In this document: positions 7,962 to 15,828 of the stretch, piece after piece
Position numbering within the stretch: the first letter of the stretch is position 1
How the letters are laid out: every line of letters begins with the position of its first letter
Assembly: GCA_030447505.1 (NCBI GenBank)
Contig: JAUJOT010000002.1
Span: forward strand, 310,001-374,000
Source: Solirubrobacteraceae bacterium
Lineage (GTDB): Bacteria > Actinomycetota > Thermoleophilia > Solirubrobacterales > Solirubrobacteraceae
Reading direction: 5' to 3'
DNA length: 64,000 nt
Program-made: the position numbers and the translations under genes
Notes under the pieces: model-generated
Told to the model about the DNA's origin: nothing
Database searches by the model: none
Seen by the model: only the letters and a program-made list of their open reading frames with translations

Positions 7962-9002
7962 ATGAGCCTTGCTCGATCACGCGTCGCGGCCGTCGCTGCG
8001 CTCGCCGCATTGGCGGCGGGCTGCGGCGGCGACGATTCCGTCGAGCGGCCGGCGCGAGCCGAGGCGCCCGACGTCGTCGTCGAGGGTGCGCGCACCAACG
8101 GGACGCTCGCTCGCGTCCCGGAGATCTACCGGCGGCTGGAGCCATCCGTCGTCGCCGTCGAGGTCAGCGGGGCAGAGGGCCGCGGCGAGGGCAGCGGCGT
8201 CGTCTACGAGCCGCGCCGGATCGTGACCAACCACCACGTCGTCGCGGGCGCGGACGACGTCGCCGTCGTGCTGGCAAGCGGCAAGCGGATCAGCGCGCGC
8301 GTCGTCGCGAGCGACCCTCGGACGGACCTGGCGCTGCTGGCAGTCGGGCGCGTCCTGCCGCCGGCGAAGTTCGCCGAGTCGCTGCCGCCCGTCGGCTCGC
8401 TCGCCGTCGCGATCGGCAACCCGCTCGGGTTCGCGGGGTCAGTCACGGCGGGCGTCGTCTCCGGTCTGGATCGTGCGATCCCCTCCGGCGGCCGGACGCC
8501 GGCGCTCGTCAACCTGCTCCAGACCGACGCGCCGATCTCACCGGGCAACTCCGGCGGCGCGCTCGTCGGCGCGGACGGCGAGGTGATCGGCATCAACGTC
8601 GCGTACATCCCTCCGATCGCGCGGGCCGTCTCGATCGGCTTCGCGATCCCATCGCCTACGGTCGTCGACGTGCTGCGACAGCTGGCGGCCGACGGCGACG
8701 TCGAGCACGCGTTCCTCGGCGTGCAGCTGCGGCCGTTGACGCCCGAGGTCGCCGACCGGCTCGGCCTGCGGGTGCAGGAGGGCGCGATCGTGGCCGGCGT
8801 CGGCAACGGGACGCCTGGCGATCGCGCGGGTCTGCGCGCGGGCGACATCATCGTCGAGGTCGGCGAGCGAGAGGTCGCAAGCGTGGAGGACGTCCTCTCC
8901 GTCCTTCGCCGGACCGAGCCGGGGAACAAGCTGACGTTCACCGTCGTGCGCGACGGCGACCGGCGCGACGTCACCGTCACGACGGGCCGGCGCGCGGATT
9001 GA
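7962..9002 (+). CDS. HtrA/DegP-like serine protease with PDZ domain, lipoprotein
   Basis: A 346-residue trypsin-like protease of the HtrA/DegP type, expected outside the cytoplasmic membrane. The start at ATG 7962 gives a lipoprotein signal with the lipobox LAAGC (Cys21); a GTG 33 bases upstream is the alternative. The catalytic triad is visible: His92 in TNHHVV, Asp122 in RTDLALL and Ser197 in PGNSGGAL. A single PDZ domain follows (about 255-340, FLGVQLRPLTPEVADRLGL to the end). The family degrades or refolds misfolded envelope proteins. The gene lies between stress-type and lipoprotein genes, which suits an envelope quality-control role. Confidence 0.9.
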   Translation: MSLARSRVAAVAALAALAAGCGGDDSVERPARAEAPDVVVEGARTNGTLARVPEIYRRLEPSVVAVEVSGAEGRGEGSGVVYEPRRIVTNHHVVAGADDVAVVLASGKRISARVVASDPRTDLALLAVGRVLPPAKFAESLPPVGSLAVAIGNPLGFAGSVTAGVVSGLDRAIPSGGRTPALVNLLQTDAPISPGNSGGALVGADGEVIGINVAYIPPIARAVSIGFAIPSPTVVDVLRQLAADGDVEHAFLGVQLRPLTPEVADRLGLRVQEGAIVAGVGNGTPGDRAGLRAGDIIVEVGEREVASVEDVLSVLRRTEPGNKLTFTVVRDGDRRDVTVTTGRRAD

Positions 9003-9158
9003 CATGCGCCGTCGAGTGGCGATCGAGACGAAGGCGACCGTCGTTTCAAGCGCTTGCGCTTCGGTTCGAGCGGAGAACGGGTGGCGCGGGCTGCTGGATC
9101 GTCAAGCGCCGGCGCGAGGACGCGCTGGCGCCGCGATGCTCGCGACCGCCTCGCCGGC

Positions 9159-9317
9159 ATGAACCGGCTGGCGCTCGGAGCGCTTGCCGGCGTTCTGTTC
9201 GGCCTCGGGCTCGCGCTGGGCACGAACGTGTCCGGCCTCGTGCTCGCGCTCTACGGGTTGGTGCTCGGAGCGCTGCTCGCGGCGCTGTTCGTCAAGCTCT
9301 CGCGCGGGCCGCGCTGA
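9159..9317 (+). CDS. Small membrane protein
   Basis: A 52-residue ORF starting at ATG 9159. It encodes two closely spaced hydrophobic segments (LALGALAGVLFGLGLAL and GLVLALYGLVLGALLAALFV) joined by a short TNVS turn and ends in a basic tail, so it would form a helical hairpin in the membrane. Codon third positions are strongly G/C. No family is recognised. It lies between the HtrA-like protease and the lipoprotein gene on the same strand. Confidence 0.5.
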   Translation: MNRLALGALAGVLFGLGLALGTNVSGLVLALYGLVLGALLAALFVKLSRGPR

Positions 9318-9403
9318 CGCGGGCGGCAGCCTCGAGCGCTGCCATTGTCAGCGCGCTGACCGCCTCGCGATTCGCGGACGCTCCCGCGGGCAGTGCCACA
9401 TGT

Positions 9404-10024
9404 ATGAGACATCCCGTAGTGAGCCTGATCGCCGCCGCCGCGCTGCTGGGCGCGGCCGGCTGCGGATCCGACAACGACGCCGAGGACGAGCAGGCGGTGA
9501 CGACGGCCGGCGGCGGTCAGGTCACGGCGACGACCGAAGACCCCGACACCACCACCGAACCCGCGAGGGACGCCGGGCAGACGGACGCCGGGCAGACGGA
9601 CGGCGAGCTGTCGGCGGAGGGCCGTGCCGTGCTTGCCGCCACCCAGGATCTCGCCGCTGACGTCAGCGAGACCGCCGAGGAGTTCGGACGCGGGCGGATC
9701 GACGAGGACGAGGCGAGGGCGCAGCTCGAGCTCGCGCGCGAGCGCGCCGACGACCTGCGGCGCCGCGCGCAGGAGCTGCCCGCTGCCGGCCGCGGTCGCG
9801 AGCGGCTGGCCTCGTTGAACGAAGAGATCAGCCGTACCGCGAGTGACCTCTCGAGGCTCGTGTCCGAGGGTCGTCGAGAGAGCCGCGACGAGATCAGGGA
9901 GCGCATCGCGCAGCTGCGCGGCGAGGCGCGGTCGACGTTCGACACGCTGAGCGAGCAGCTCGACGAGCAGGCGCAGGAGCGAATCCGCGAAGCGCTCGAC
10001 CGCATCGGTGTCAACGCCCCCTAG
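9404..10024 (+). CDS. Putative lipoprotein with coiled-coil C-terminal domain
   Basis: A 206-residue protein with a lipoprotein signal peptide (VVSLIAAAALLGAAGCG, lipobox Cys near residue 19). A disordered Thr/Asp/Gln-rich linker follows, containing a 15-base tandem duplication that repeats DAGQT. A long charged helical region (about 65-206) is rich in Glu, Arg and Leu and is probably coiled coil. ATG 9404 was chosen because it places the signal peptide at the N-terminus; the frame is open further upstream without coding features. No enzymatic motif is seen. A strong hairpin terminator follows at 10038-10065. Confidence 0.7.
   Translation: MRHPVVSLIAAAALLGAAGCGSDNDAEDEQAVTTAGGGQVTATTEDPDTTTEPARDAGQTDAGQTDGELSAEGRAVLAATQDLAADVSETAEEFGRGRIDEDEARAQLELARERADDLRRRAQELPAAGRGRERLASLNEEISRTASDLSRLVSEGRRESRDEIRERIAQLRGEARSTFDTLSEQLDEQAQERIREALDRIGVNAP
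9569..9598 (+). repeat. 15-bp tandem repeat, two copies
   Basis: GACGCCGGGCAGACG occurs twice head to tail (9569-9583 and 9584-9598) inside the linker of the lipoprotein gene and adds one DAGQT unit in frame. Confidence 0.9.
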
Positions 10025-10037
10025 TGAGTCGCCCAGG

Positions 10038-10065
10038 AACGTTGCGCCCGACCGGGTGCAACGTT
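10038..10065. terminator. Bidirectional hairpin terminator
   Basis: AACGTTGCGCCC, a GACC loop, then GGGTGCAACGTT. The 12-bp stem has a single G/T position that wobbles in RNA, and TTTG follows on the + strand. It lies between the convergent lipoprotein gene (stop 10024) and the formate dehydrogenase membrane subunit gene (stop 10078), so it could end transcripts from both sides. Confidence 0.75.
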
Positions 10066-10077
10066 TGTGGGCGGCCC

Positions 10078-11496
10078 CTAGTACGGCGCGCGCCCGGTGC
10101 CTGGCGTGCCAGGCACCGGGCCGGCGCGGCCGAGCAGGCGCTCCGCGATCAGGCTGGCGCGGCGGACCGCCTCCGGGTACGCGCCCCGAGCGCGCGGTCG
10201 ACGGAGCGGGGTGCGCAGCGACGACGGGAGGCGACGCGCAGGGCGCCGCGTGAGGGGCTCGTCGTCGGCCATGACCGCGCCGCGCGCCACGCGCGCGACC
10301 GCCTCGTCGTCGGTCGCCGAGGTCCGGCCCGCGCCGATCCAGGCGTAGCGGAACGCCAGGCCTGCGCCGAGCTGGCAGACGCTGGCGACATCATCTGCGC
10401 GACGGCCCAGCGGCCGTCGCAGGAGCCGCAGCGCGAGCCCCGTGCGCGCGGCCCACGTGGCGCTGCGAAACAGCCGCCCGGGCATGCCGTGCTCGAGGCT
10501 GCGCGCGGCGCGGCCCAGCCGCTTCTCGTTGAACGAGGCGAGCGCGAGCTCGCTCAGCATCGCGCCGGTCTCGACGTTGCCGAGCGCCGCGCGCGTCGGG
10601 TGGCCCGCGGGCAGGCCGGCGGCGACGAGCGCCAGCCGCGTCGCCGCCGCTCCCGTCGCGGCGGCCGTGCAGACGAAGATCGGTCCCAGCAGCAGGCGGC
10701 TGCGCGCCCACAGCGGGACCGCCGTCGTGGCCAGCAGCACGCCGGTGTAGGACCCGAGGTAGGCCCCGACGACGACGTTCGCGCCGCCGATCGCGCGCGC
10801 GGCGCGCGGCCGGCCGAGCAGGTCGGCGGCCACGGCGGCGCCGGCGAGGCCGCTGAAGCCGGCGAGCGACCACGCGCCGAGGTTCATCGGCGATCGCGGC
10901 TTGAAGATCCGCAGCATGTTCAAGAAGCGTGACGGGCGACCGAGGTCGGCGATCAGCAAGGGCGGCGACGGCAGCACGGCGGCCAGCGCGACGTTGCGTG
11001 CGATCGCCGCCGAGCGGTGGTCGCCGGCCAGGTCGCAGCCGAGCGCGACGAATGACGAGCCGGCCGCGATGCCGCCGAACCAGAAGTACAGGGGCACCTC
11101 CCATGTCCAGACCGGGGCGCTGATGACGGGGCCGCGGACCGGCGGCATCTCGCCGCCGCGCATGCGACGGTTGGCCTGCGCTACCGCCGGCAGGTCCGCG
11201 GTCGCGCTTGCGTACTGCGTGTCGTCCTTGAAGAGGAACGACCACGCGGCGTCGGCCCAGCCGCCGCGCTGCAGCGCCACGCGCGCGCCCGGCTCGGCGC
11301 GCTCCCAGGCGCCCGGCTCGCCTCGCGTTCCGAGCGCCGGCGACATGTCGCGGCCGCCGCCGGCGCGGACGGGCCGCTGCGTCTCGCGCTCGGCCGCGGT
11401 CGCCGGCGGCTCGTCGGCCGGCATCACCGTGGCCGGGGCCGGCGTGTCGCCGAGTGGCGCGCGGGGAACGCGCCGGTCGTCATCGGGCTCGCTCAT
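10078..11496 (-). CDS. nrfD: NrfD/PsrC-type membrane subunit of formate dehydrogenase
   Basis: A 472-residue polytopic protein related to NrfD/PsrC, the quinone-facing membrane subunit of many molybdopterin oxidoreductases. A disordered N-terminal region (about 1-110) is followed by WTWEVPLYFWFGGIAAGSSFVAL, the usual first NrfD helix, and about eight more hydrophobic segments to about residue 370. An Arg-rich tail ends in GPVPGTPGTG. It would pass electrons between the FdhB iron-sulfur clusters and menaquinone. The ATG (11496) overlaps the in-frame stop of the frame-corrected fdhB (ATGA), which indicates coupling. The long charged N-terminus is unusual for NrfD. No cytochrome b556-type subunit is present. 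Confidence 0.85.
   Translation of the reverse strand: MSEPDDDRRVPRAPLGDTPAPATVMPADEPPATAAERETQRPVRAGGGRDMSPALGTRGEPGAWERAEPGARVALQRGGWADAAWSFLFKDDTQYASATADLPAVAQANRRMRGGEMPPVRGPVISAPVWTWEVPLYFWFGGIAAGSSFVALGCDLAGDHRSAAIARNVALAAVLPSPPLLIADLGRPSRFLNMLRIFKPRSPMNLGAWSLAGFSGLAGAAVAADLLGRPRAARAIGGANVVVGAYLGSYTGVLLATTAVPLWARSRLLLGPIFVCTAAATGAAATRLALVAAGLPAGHPTRAALGNVETGAMLSELALASFNEKRLGRAARSLEHGMPGRLFRSATWAARTGLALRLLRRPLGRRADDVASVCQLGAGLAFRYAWIGAGRTSATDDEAVARVARGAVMADDEPLTRRPARRLPSSLRTPLRRPRARGAYPEAVRRASLIAERLLGRAGPVPGTPGTGRAPY
10093..10120. repeat. Perfect 12-bp inverted repeat
   Basis: CCCGGTGCCTGG, a CGTG loop, then CCAGGCACCGGG, lying inside the last codons of the NrfD-like gene. It sits 27 bases from the hairpin at 10038-10065, so the fdh transcript could end in two tandem hairpins; it may add to termination or to 3' end stability. 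Confidence 0.7.
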
Positions 11497-12541
11497 CGCT
11501 GCCACCTGCGCGCCGCGGCGCGCGCCGCCCAGCCGCGCGGCCCGCTCGGCTGCGCTCCCCTGGCGGCGAGCACGAACGCCGCCGCCACGCCGGCGGCCGC
11601 CAGCAGCCCCGCGCCGAACGCCGCCGCCGTCGCGGGCACGACGTTCTCCTGGATCGGCGACTCGGCCTGCGCCGGCAGCCCGTAGCGCTCGGGAGCGTGC
11701 GTGAGCAGGAAGAACGCGCCGAGCCCCCGGCGAGCTCCTCGTCGGGATCGTCGCCGGCGCCGTAGAGGTAGGCGTCGCCGATGCCGCGCCGGTGCAGCTC
11801 GCCGACGCGCCGGGCCGCGATCTCGACGAGCTCGTCATAGGGCCCGAACTGGATCGAGTCGGTCGGGCAGGACTTCGCGCAGGCCGGCTCGAGGCCGTCC
11901 TCGATGCGGTCGTAGCAGAGGGTGCACTTGGCGGCGCGGCCGTCCTCGTGGTCGCGCGCGACGACGCCGAACGGGCAGGCGGGCACGCAGTAGCCGCACC
12001 CGTTGCAGACGTCGGGCTGCAGGATCACCGTGTCGAACTCGGTCCGGATCAGCGCCCCGGTCGGGCAGGCGTCGAGGCAGCCGGCGTTCGTGCAGTGCTT
12101 GCAGACGTCGGACATGAAGATCCAGTCGTCCATCGCCGCGACGGCCGCGGCGACGTCGACGCCGCCGTCGGCGCCGGCCGCGGCGACGCTCACGAGGTCG
12201 GGACCGTCGCCCTCGGTACCGCCGGCGGCGGGGATCTGCGGCAGCTGCCCGCCCGCACCGGCGCGCAGCCGCCGCGCGGCGTCGTCGCGCGCGGGCGGCG
12301 TCGCCTCGGCCAGCTCGACGAAGCGCACGTGGCGCCACGTCGACGCGTTCAGGCCGCCGGTGTGGTCGTAGGAGCCGCCCTTGAGGAACTGGGCGCCGTC
12401 GCCGGGAAGGTCGTTCCACTGCTTGCAGGCGACCTCGCAGGCCTTGCAGCCGATGCAGACGGTCGTGTCCGTGAAGAAGCCCATCCGCTGCGCCTCGGGG
12501 CGCTCGATCGCGCGCTCGGTCGCTGAGGCGCGCGTCGTCAC
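11493..12541 (-). CDS. fdhB: Formate dehydrogenase iron-sulfur subunit FdhB (frameshifted in this sequence)
   Basis: Ferredoxin-like subunit carrying four [4Fe-4S] clusters. Four Cys groups are present: CIGCKACEVAC, CKHCTNAGCLDAC, CNGCGYCVPAC and CTLC with CAKSC. The GTG start at 12541 overlaps the fdhA stop (GTGA) and gives an N-terminus before MGFFTDTTVCIGC. The frame breaks at the CCCCC run 11724-11728. Restoring one base gives GGLGAFFLLTHAPERYGLP, then a C-terminal membrane helix (VVPATAAAFGAGLLAAAGVAAAFVL), as in FdhB/FdnH proteins. The corrected frame stops at 11493, overlapping the nrfD start as ATGA. As printed, the protein lacks its anchor and runs on in the wrong frame to 11480. A sequencing error is more likely than true inactivation. 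Confidence 0.88.
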
Positions 12542-15500
12542 GTGATCTCCGATGGGTACTCGGCGGCCGGATCGTCCTCGTCGGGCCGGATCGGCCGCTG
12601 CAGCCGCGCACCCGCGAGCCTGGCCGTCGTCGGGCGCTCGCGCCGCCCGGCGCGGACGTTGCAGGAGAAGGCCTTGGACTCCTGGATGTTGACGTTGGGG
12701 TCGCCCGACAGCGCGCCGAGGTCGTTCGTGCTGTCGCCGTGGACGCCGCCCGCGAAGCCCCAGTGCCATGGCAGGCAGACCTGGTGGACGATCCGCCCGT
12801 CGAGCTTCAGGGGGCGCACGCGCGGGGTCACCTTCGCCCGCGCCTCGATCTCGCCCCGCGACGTCTCGACGGTCATCCAGCCGCCGTCCTCGATGCCGCG
12901 GTCGGCGGCGAGCGCCGGGTCGATCTCGGCGAACATCTCGGGCTGCAGCTCGGCGAGCCAGGGCAGGTTGCGGCTCATCGCACCGGCGGTGTGGTGCTCC
13001 GTCAGGCGGAAGCTGGTGGCGACGATCGGGTAGCGCGGATCGCCGCTGGCGTTGTAGGGGTTCTCCGGCCGCTGCCACTTGACGGCCGCCGGGTTCATGT
13101 GGAGATCCGGATACAGCGGGTGCTCGAAGGGCGACTCGAACGGCTCGTAGTGCGTCGGCAGCGGGCCGTCGAGCAGGCCGCTGGGAGCAAACAGCCAGCC
13201 GCGCCCGTCGGGCAGCATGATGAACGGGTCGTCGCCGGAGATCGCGTCCATCGCCAACGCGTCGGGCGGCGCCCTGTAGTCGGGGCGCTTGTCGGCGGGG
13301 AAGTCGGGGACGTCGTAGCCCGTCCAGCGCTGCTGCTCGGCGTCCCACCAGACGTAGCGCTTGCGCTCCGACCACGGCCGTCCGTCGGGATCGGCCGACG
13401 CACGGTTGTAGAGCACGCGCCGGTTCAGCGGCCATGCCCAGCCCCAGTGCGGCGACACCCAGCCGCCCGGCGCGGTGATGTCACCGGGGTCGCGCCGGCG
13501 CGCCTGGTTGACGCCGTCCTCGAAGTAGCCGCTGTAGATCCAGCACCCGCATGCCGTCGAGCCGTCGTCGCGCAGGGCGGTGAAGGCGGGCAGCGGCTCG
13601 CCCGTCGCGACGTCGTAGCCGTTGATCTCCCTGGCGACGGCCTCGACATCGGGCTCTCGGATCTCCCCGTGCTCGGGGTAGTCCCAGGTGAGGTTGAGGA
13701 TCGGCCAGTCGCGGTCGCGCCGCGAGCCGGCGTAGTGGGCGCGCACGCGCCGGCCGAGGTGGTGCATGAACCACAGCTCCGAGCGCGCGTCAGCGGGCGG
13801 ATCGAGCGCCTTGTCGCGCCACTGCAGCAGCCGCTGGGTGTTCGTGAACGTCCCCTCCTTCTCGACGTGCGAGGCGGCCGGCATCAGGAAGACCTCGGTC
13901 TGGATGTCCTCGATGCGCAGCTCGCCGGACCTCACCTCGGGGCTGTCGCGCCAGAACGTCGCCGACTCGATCTCCGTCAGGTCGCGCACGACGAGCCACT
14001 TCAGGCTCGCCAGCGCGCGGCGCTGCAGACCCGAGTGCTGCGAGCCGACGGCCGGGTTCTGGCCCATCAGGAACAGGCCCTCGACGCCGCCGTCGATCGC
14101 GCGCAGCATCGTCGAGAAGTGCGAGTGGTTGCCCGTCAGCTTGGGCAGGTGCCGGAAGCCGAACTCGTTCTCGCGGGTCGCCGCTTCGCCGAACCACGCC
14201 TTCAGCAGCGAGACGACGTAGGTCTCGTAGAACGCCCACCAGCCGCGCTGCTTGCCGCCCGCCTCGACGTGGTCGCACAGCGACGGCCCGTCGGCAGCCG
14301 CGCGCGGCATCTCCAGGTAGCCCGGGAGGATGTCGAACAGCGTCGGGATGTCCGTCGAGCCCTGGATCGACGCGTGCCCGCGCAGCGCCATGATGCCCCC
14401 GCCGGGGCGCCCGATGTTGCCGAGCAGCAGCTGCAGGATCGCCGCCGTGCGGATGATCTGCACGCCCGCCGTGTGCTGCGTCCAGCCGACGGCGTAGCAC
14501 AGCGCGGTGGTGCGATCGCGTCCGGAGTTCTGCACGAGCGCGTCCGCGACCGCGCGGAAGTCCTGCTGAGAGATGCCGCAGACGCGCTGCACGAACTCGG
14601 GCGTATAGCGGGCGAAGTGCCGGCGGAGCACCTGGAAGACGCAGCGTGGATGGCGCAGCGTGTCGTCGCGCGGGGCGCCGCCCGGATCGATGCCGCCGCC
14701 GCTGCGCTCGTCGTAGCCCTGGCTCGTGTGCGTCTGGGCGTCGCCGTCGGTGCCGCCGCCCGCGTTCTCGTACTGCCACGTCGCCGGGTCGTACGTCGCG
14801 GTCTCTGCGTCGAAGCCCGAGAACAGCCCGCCGAGGTCCTCGGTGTCCTGGAAGTCGTCGCGCAGGATCGTCGGCGCGTTGGTGTAGTTGACGACGTACT
14901 CGCGGAAGTAGGACTCGCTCTCGATGACGTGGCGGATCAGCGCGCCGAGCAAGGCGATGTCGGTGCCGGCGCGGATCGGGACGTGGAGGTCGGCGAGCTG
15001 GCTCGTGCGGCCGAAGCGCGGATCGACGTGGATGATCGTCGCGCCGCGCTCCTTGGCCTTCATCACCCAGCGGAAGCCGACCGGATGCGCCTCGGCCATC
15101 GAGGATCCCTGGATCAGGACGCAGTCAGCGTTCTGCAGGTCCTGCTGGAAGCCGGTGGCGCCGCCGCGCCCGAACGTCGCGCCCAGACCGGGCACCGTCG
15201 AGGAGTGTCATATGCGCGCCTGGTTCTCGATCTGGATCGCCCCCATCGCGGTGAAGAGCTTCTTGATGAGGTAGTTCTCCTCGTTGTCGAGCGTCGCGCC
15301 GCCGAGGTGGGCGAAGCCGAGCGTGCGGTCGACGCGCCAGCCCTGGCGGTCGGCGTCCTGCCAGCCGTTCTCGCGGGCCGCTACCACGCGCTCGGCGATC
15401 ATGTCCATCGCCTGCTCGAGCTCGAGCTCCTCCCAGTCGCTGCCGCCCGGCCGCCGGTACCTCACCTTCGTCAGGCGCCCGGGCTGCTGGACGAGCTGGC

Positions 15501-15828
15501 GCGACGCGGCTCCCTTCGGGCACAGCGTCCCCTGGTTGATCGGCGAGCGCGGGTTGCCCTCGATGTCGACGAGCTCGCCCCCGCGCGTGTAGACGAGCTG
15601 GCCGCAGCCGACGGCGCAGTAGGGGCACACCGACTCGGTCACCTTCAGGCCGGCGACGCGCGCGCCGGCGCGTCGCGTCGGCGGCGAGGCGGCGCTGGCG
15701 CCCATACCCCAGTCGAGCGCTCGACCGAGCAGCGGAACGCGCCGCGCGCGCTCGAACGAGCTGGGCCGTGACCCGGGCCTGCTCGGCTGTCCGTCGCGCT
15801 CGTCCACGGGCCGTTCTCGCCGGCTCAT
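12538..15828 (-). CDS. fdhA: Formate dehydrogenase catalytic subunit FdhA, selenocysteine-containing
   Basis: Molybdopterin (Mo/W-bis-MGD) formate dehydrogenase of 1096 residues, read through an in-frame UGA at 15210-15208 as Sec207. It oxidises formate to CO2 or does the reverse. The N-terminal [4Fe-4S] domain has Cys68, 71, 75 and 103 (CPYCAVGCGQ and LCPKGAA). The residues either side of the UGA read IENQARI-U-HSSTVPGLG, the selenocysteine site of known FdhA proteins. The rest continues without a break to the MGD-binding C-terminal domain (HHTAGAMSRNLPWLAELQPEMF). A SECIS hairpin lies directly after the UGA. No twin-arginine signal is seen, so a cytoplasmic-facing enzyme is likely. ATG 15828 was chosen; GTG 15855 is an alternative. 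The stop overlaps the fdhB start. Confidence 0.92.
15179..15210 (-). promoter_or_regulatory. UGA codon plus bacterial SECIS element in fdhA
   Basis: On the minus strand the UGA (15210-15208) is followed after 12 bases by GTGCCC, the loop GGTCT, then GGGCGC, a 6-bp stem with one wobble pair. The GGUCU apical loop sits at the same codon distance from the UGA as the SelB-binding loop of Escherichia coli fdhF. This supports selenocysteine insertion rather than termination. Confidence 0.88.

What the first reader, a model, noticed from the sequence alone, without database searches (positions are those of the whole stretch)
12538..15828. Selenocysteine formate dehydrogenase with a GGUCU SECIS hairpin
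An in-frame UGA (15208-15210) splits the FdhA frame exactly at the known Sec site (IENQARI-U-HSS), and the following GTGCCC-GGTCT-GGGCGC hairpin has the E. coli fdhF apical loop at the same distance. A gene caller would break this into two ORFs. It implies SelA, SelB, SelC and SelD elsewhere in the genome.
Basis: partly seen in the sequence, partly recalled or inferred. Interest (0 to 1): 0.78.

Follow-up and report, generated by a model that had tools for sequence, protein, structure and literature searches.

The report
Selenocysteine formate dehydrogenase gene, well supported
A soil-type actinobacterium (family Solirubrobacteraceae) carries a formate-oxidising enzyme whose gene uses one internal stop codon to insert the rare amino acid selenocysteine, guided by a small RNA hairpin; this is an ordinary, already recognised kind of enzyme, although its genome holds two unexpected selenium genes elsewhere and a conserved, unexplained base just before the recoded stop.

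Summary
UGA 15208-15210 (- strand) interrupts an otherwise intact 1,096-codon FdhA frame at the selenocysteine (Sec) residue of solved formate dehydrogenases. The hairpin GUGCCC-GGUCU-GGGCGC (15195-15179) starts at the same offset from the UGA as in E. coli fdhF and is the only such element in the window. 28 of 30 full-length orthologs from the order keep UGA; the other two have Cys, no intact hairpin and no selA. Across 68 distinct sequences the hairpin shows compensatory changes. The genome has tRNA-Sec(UCA), selA, selD and selB together on another contig. FdhA matches NCBIfam NF041513; a relative in Actinomycetospora oxidises formate in a selenium-dependent way. New member of a known kind.

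Caveat: in this assembly selB carries a one-base frame break that puts its SECIS-binding winged helix out of frame; fdhB has another. Same-genus relatives have intact selB, so an assembly error is likelier, but decay is not excluded.

Unexpected: beside selABCD lies a glycine/sarcosine/betaine-reductase cluster with two more in-frame-UGA selenoprotein genes (grdA, grdB) and no detectable grdD. The codon before the Sec codon ends in A/U in 106 of 108 genes (about 8% expected).

The parts
12538..15828 (-). fdhA: catalytic alpha subunit of a molybdopterin formate dehydrogenase, 1,096 aa with Sec at 207; start codon not tested
   Evidence: Frame with one internal UGA; NF041513 1694.7 bits (cut-off 1400) and TIGR01553 974.5 (814.2); Pfam Molybdopterin, Molybdop_Fe4S4 and Molydop_binding; PDB 1h0h E 4e-222
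15208..15210 (-). UGA codon read as selenocysteine (Sec207)
   Evidence: Aligns with Sec of 1h0h/1kqf; UGA in 28 of 30 full-length orthologs of the order, TGC/TGT in the other two
15179..15195 (-). SECIS apical hairpin GUGCCC-GGUCU-GGGCGC
   Evidence: Same 21-nt offset as E. coli fdhF; compensatory changes; lost in the two Cys orthologs
15211..15213 (-). AUA (Ile206), the codon just before the Sec codon; conserved A/U-ending codon of unknown role
   Evidence: 28 of 28 Sec orthologs of the order have AUA, against 1.46% of their other Ile codons; third base A/U in 106 of 108
11480..12541 (-). fdhB: iron-sulphur beta subunit; frame breaks near 11724-11740 (one base missing against relatives), after which the expected membrane-anchor tail (GLGAFFLLTHAPERYGLP...) continues in another frame to about 11493
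   Evidence: Fer4 domains; alignment with relatives
10078..11496 (-). fdhC: NrfD-type membrane subunit, the likely quinone-linked anchor
   Evidence: PF03916 NrfD 62.3 bits; its ATG overlaps the stop of the shifted fdhB frame

Best explanation
fdhA-fdhB-fdhC encode a membrane-linked formate dehydrogenase. At codon 207 the ribosome meets UGA. SelB, carrying GTP and Sec-tRNA(UCA), binds the hairpin that starts 12 nt after the UGA and delivers Sec in place of RF2-mediated termination. The Sec selenium ligates the molybdenum (or tungsten) of the bis-pterin cofactor, formate is oxidised to CO2, and electrons pass through FdhA/FdhB iron-sulphur clusters to the NrfD-like subunit and the quinone pool. 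Shown here: the codon, the hairpin and its covariation, the homology, the operon, and the presence of selA, selC, selD and a selB homolog. Inferred: actual Sec insertion, cofactor, electron path, and that the selB and fdhB frame breaks are not real inactivations.
For: Frame and alignment to solved selenoenzymes; family scores; hairpin covariation and offset; Sec/Cys natural experiment with selA absent from both Cys genomes; tRNA-Sec, selA, selD and selB; co-occurrence; operon partners. Actinomycetospora chiangmaiensis FDH1 is a similar fdhABC operon with selA and selB, detected by proteomics, and formate removal in that strain needs selenite (PMC7176365).
Against: In this assembly selB has one extra base before its C-terminal winged helix (PF09107, 64 bits, in another frame), which if real would remove SECIS binding. 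fdhB has a one-base deletion. A crude coding-frame scan did not find clearly more frame switches here than in two relatives, so a general excess of assembly errors was not shown. Longer context weakens the hairpin in silico. Four Sec-FDH genomes showed no selA, one of them 97% complete (G027).
Confidence: 0.87

Rival explanations
1. The gene family is a Sec formate dehydrogenase, but this strain's Sec system is decaying: the broken selB can no longer bind SECIS, so UGA 207 now acts as a stop.
For: One-base insertion puts the SelB winged helix out of frame and fdhB also carries a one-base break; no general excess of frame switches was shown.
Against: fdhA itself, selA, selD, grdB and grdA show no extra breaks. 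UGA, loop and hairpin pairing are intact. Same-genus genomes have intact selB. Single-base indels in GC-rich DNA are a common assembly error (general knowledge).
Confidence: 0.1
2. Sequencing error or pseudogene: the UGA is a miscalled TGC/TGT or a nonsense mutation in a Cys enzyme.
For: Cys forms exist in the order (L048, L050).
Against: UGA at the same codon in 28 orthologs of the order and in 75 of 80 further loci, the other five having UAG; covarying hairpin; Sec machinery present.
Confidence: 0.01
3. Two separate polypeptides are made by stop and restart: AUAUGA contains an AUGA start/stop overlap.
For: ATATGA is present in all 28 Sec orthologs of the order.
Against: The overlapping ORF has no conserved length (2 to 1,268 codons) and is not the fdhA frame; outside the order most genes have AUU or GUU, which makes no AUG.
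Confidence: 0.02

Closest known systems
NCBIfam NF041513 formate_DH_Act (actinobacterial formate dehydrogenase)
   Same: Full-length match 40-1068 of 1,097, 1694.7 bits over a cut-off of 1400; orthologs across Actinobacteria with in-frame UGA.
   Different: Nothing of substance.
Actinomycetospora chiangmaiensis DSM 45062 FDH1 (PMC7176365)
   Same: Sec FdhA (1078 aa), FdhB, FdhC; selenium-dependent formate removal.
   Different: There selA and selB sit in the FDH cluster; here the sel genes are on another contig beside a Grd cluster.
E. coli FdnG (1kqf) and Desulfovibrio W-FDH (1h0h)
   Same: Alpha-subunit homology and Sec site.
   Different: Membrane subunit here is NrfD-type; the gamma subunit of FdnGHI is a cytochrome b (general knowledge).
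E. coli fdhF SECIS
   Same: GGUCU loop at offset 21.
   Different: Stem sequence differs; the codon before UGA is GTC in fdhF, AUA here.

Membership tests
NF041513 / Sec formate dehydrogenase alpha subunit | Score over curated cut-off over full length | tested here: met
   1694.7 vs 1400 bits; TIGR01553 974.5 vs 814.2
NF041513 / Sec formate dehydrogenase alpha subunit | N-terminal 4Fe-4S cysteines and Sec/Cys-His active site | tested here: met
   C68, C71, C75, C103, site 207 and H208 invariant in A2
NF041513 / Sec formate dehydrogenase alpha subunit | Formate oxidation by a Mo/W bis-pterin cofactor | not testable with these tools
   Needs enzyme assay
Bacterial SECIS element | Hairpin just 3' of UGA with (G/A)GUCU-type loop | tested here: met
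Bacterial SECIS element | Binding by SelB | not testable with these tools
   Needs binding assay
Sec-decoding trait (SelA, SelB, SelC, SelD) | tRNA-Sec(UCA), SelA and SelD intact | tested here: met
Sec-decoding trait (SelA, SelB, SelC, SelD) | Intact SelB with C-terminal winged helix | tested here: inconclusive
   Domain present but out of frame in this assembly; intact in same-genus genomes
FdhABC membrane complex | Fe-S beta subunit and membrane subunit in the operon | tested here: met
   Fer4 domains and NrfD; fdhB has one frame break

The most novel reading that the evidence does not exclude
Besides the SECIS hairpin, this formate dehydrogenase family carries a second recoding signal: an A/U-ending codon (AUA or AUU, in very GC-rich genes) directly 5' of the Sec codon, acting through the P-site tRNA or the stop-codon context to favour SelB over release factor. 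It is kept when UGA is replaced by UAG (Geodermatophilus, Blastococcus, Modestobacter) and absent from the Cys forms.
Probability: 0.45. Interest if true: 0.5.

Novelty: new member of a known kind. Interest (0 to 1): 0.33.

Why it matters
The gene would be split or mis-annotated by a standard gene caller, so confirming it corrects the annotation and shows that this Solirubrobacteraceae lineage uses selenium. The Sec/Cys/UAG ortholog set makes the SECIS testable by covariation and exposes a conserved base just before the Sec codon that could bear on how recoding competes with termination. The neighbouring Grd selenoprotein cluster, otherwise best known from anaerobes such as clostridia (general knowledge), is in this lineage a more surprising lead than the finding itself.

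Tried and rejected
Folding energy alone does not distinguish the hairpin from shuffles. An AUGA restart ORF was checked and is not conserved. A pairing partner for the base before the UGA was sought by mutual information; the best columns reflect lineage and show no complementarity. A folding effect of that base was tested by changing it to C in silico: no consistent effect on the helix. Whether the assembly is generally indel-rich was tested with a crude coding-frame Viterbi scan; most switches are gene overlaps and the rate is similar to relatives, so it did not settle the matter. Rfam found nothing in the window at gathering scores and ARAGORN no tRNA. Papers on a 5' codon effect for bacterial Sec UGA or on Grd in Solirubrobacterales were not found in the library held.

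Full report
What is there. The window lies at G000:C7:310001-374000 of a 3.84 Mb, 13-contig genome. On the minus strand, 15828-12538 reads as one 1,096-residue protein if UGA 15208-15210 is read through. A mechanical ORF list breaks it in two. The protein matches NF041513 formate_DH_Act and TIGR01553 above their curated cut-offs, and phmmer aligns codon 207 with the Sec position of 1h0h and 1kqf.

The hairpin. GUGCCC-GGUCU-GGGCGC at 15195-15179 has its loop 21 nt from the start of the UGA, the same as in E. coli K-12 fdhF taken from NC_000913. No other site in 64 kb has this arrangement. Energy alone is uninformative in such GC-rich sequence. Evolution is informative: in 22 distinct sequences from the order and 68 from Actinobacteria, Myxococcus, Acidobacteria and others, 98.5% and 99.5% of cells pair. 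The third pair switches between C-G, G-C and U-A, the closing pair between C-G and G-C, and sliding the partner destroys the signal. These changes fall at codon wobble positions (Val/Gly and Pro/Leu). The loop U, the third base of a GGT or AGT codon, is present in 108 of 108 Sec genes.

Natural experiment. Among 30 full-length or near-full-length orthologs fetched from the order, 28 have TGA; L048 (G116) has TGC and L050 (G063) TGT, with two or three of the six stem pairs broken. selA was not found in either Cys genome but was found in 24 of 28 Sec-FDH genomes, against 15 of 93 others.

Machinery. On contig C11, in one cluster on the minus strand: selB (203.5-204.8 kb), selA (205,712-206,947), tRNA-Sec with anticodon UCA (207,001-207,090) and selD (207,189-208,115). 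SelB is the weak point. Its frame runs to ...SQLGAAVGA and then leaves the conserved sequence, while the winged helix (PF09107, 64 bits) continues in another frame. Alignment with four same-genus selB genes places one extra base at about C11:203,536. fdhB likewise lacks one base in CCGG-GGGC; its shifted frame ends in an ATGA overlap with fdhC, so the shifted frame is the ancestral one. I judge these more likely to be assembly errors, because fdhA, selA, selD and the Grd genes show no such breaks and the SECIS is intact; the frame scan did not prove it.

Mechanism. By homology and operon content (FdhB Fer4 domains, NrfD-like FdhC) this is a membrane-linked, quinone-reducing formate dehydrogenase with Sec as metal ligand; the electron path and the ligand role are inferred from the family, not shown here. 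A similar actinobacterial FDH operon is expressed, and formate removal is selenite-dependent, in Actinomycetospora chiangmaiensis (PMC7176365). Formate dehydrogenase alpha is the commonest bacterial selenoprotein in one large survey (PMC5029168, 822 organisms). Hence: new member of a known kind.

Beyond the finding. (a) The codon before the Sec codon is AUA in 28 of 28 Sec orthologs of the order, though AUA is 1.46% of their other Ile codons. Across 108 genes its third base is A or U in 106; third positions in the 80-locus set are 7.7% A/T. It persists in five Geodermatophilaceae genes where UAG replaces UGA and is absent from the Cys genes (GTC), from grdA (GTC) and grdB (ACC) here and from E. 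coli fdhF (GTC). No pairing partner or folding effect was found. Sequences are related, so the count is not a count of independent events. (b) Next to selD on the plus strand lies a cluster encoding GrdE/G-like, GrdB-like (in-frame UGA, TAT-U-GTGTRCG), GrdC-like, thioredoxin-like and GrdA-like (STECFV-U-TASGAMDL) proteins. GrdA with one UGA occurs in 10 of 121 genomes of the order and accounts for six selA-positive genomes without a full-length FDH. GrdD (NF040747) was not found over cut-off in any of the ten.

Noticed in passing
L078 (G000:C11:200001-220000), about 8740-13511 +; UGA codons at L078 10989 (grdB) and 13178 (grdA): Glycine/sarcosine/betaine-reductase-like cluster beside selABCD with two further selenoprotein genes (GrdA NF040748 213.9 bits over 130; GrdB TIGR01918 418.7 over 65; GrdC NF040746 553 over 450) plus a thioredoxin. 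No GrdD over cut-off in this or nine other GrdA-bearing genomes of the order; substrate and product unknown.
   Followed up: partly
window 15211-15213 and the orthologs in L022-L051, L091-L170: The codon directly before the Sec codon ends in A/U in 106 of 108 genes (AUA in all 28 of the order) despite about 8% A/T third positions; absent from Cys orthologs, grdA, grdB and E. coli fdhF. No structural partner found.
   Followed up: partly
L052 about 2537 (G000:C11 near 203,536): selB has one extra base relative to same-genus genes, putting the SECIS-binding winged helix out of frame; assembly error or real decay.
   Followed up: partly
window 11724-11740: fdhB lacks one base in CCGG-GGGC compared with relatives; its membrane-anchor tail continues in another frame up to the fdhC start.
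   Followed up: partly
L115, L132, L155, L162, L169: Geodermatophilus, Blastococcus and Modestobacter fdhA have UAG instead of UGA at the Sec codon with an intact hairpin (natural UAG-Sec in this family is, from memory, already published).
   Followed up: no
genome G027 (L029): 97% complete genome with a Sec-type fdhA and hairpin but no selA or selB found.
   Followed up: no
genomes G066, G049, G055, G094, G110: selA over cut-off but neither full or partial Sec-FDH nor GrdA found; they may hold other selenoproteins or be fragmentary.
   Followed up: no
L062 and L071 (genome G072): One genome carries two selB, two selA and two grdA copies on different contigs; duplication or mixed strains in the MAG.
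   Followed up: no
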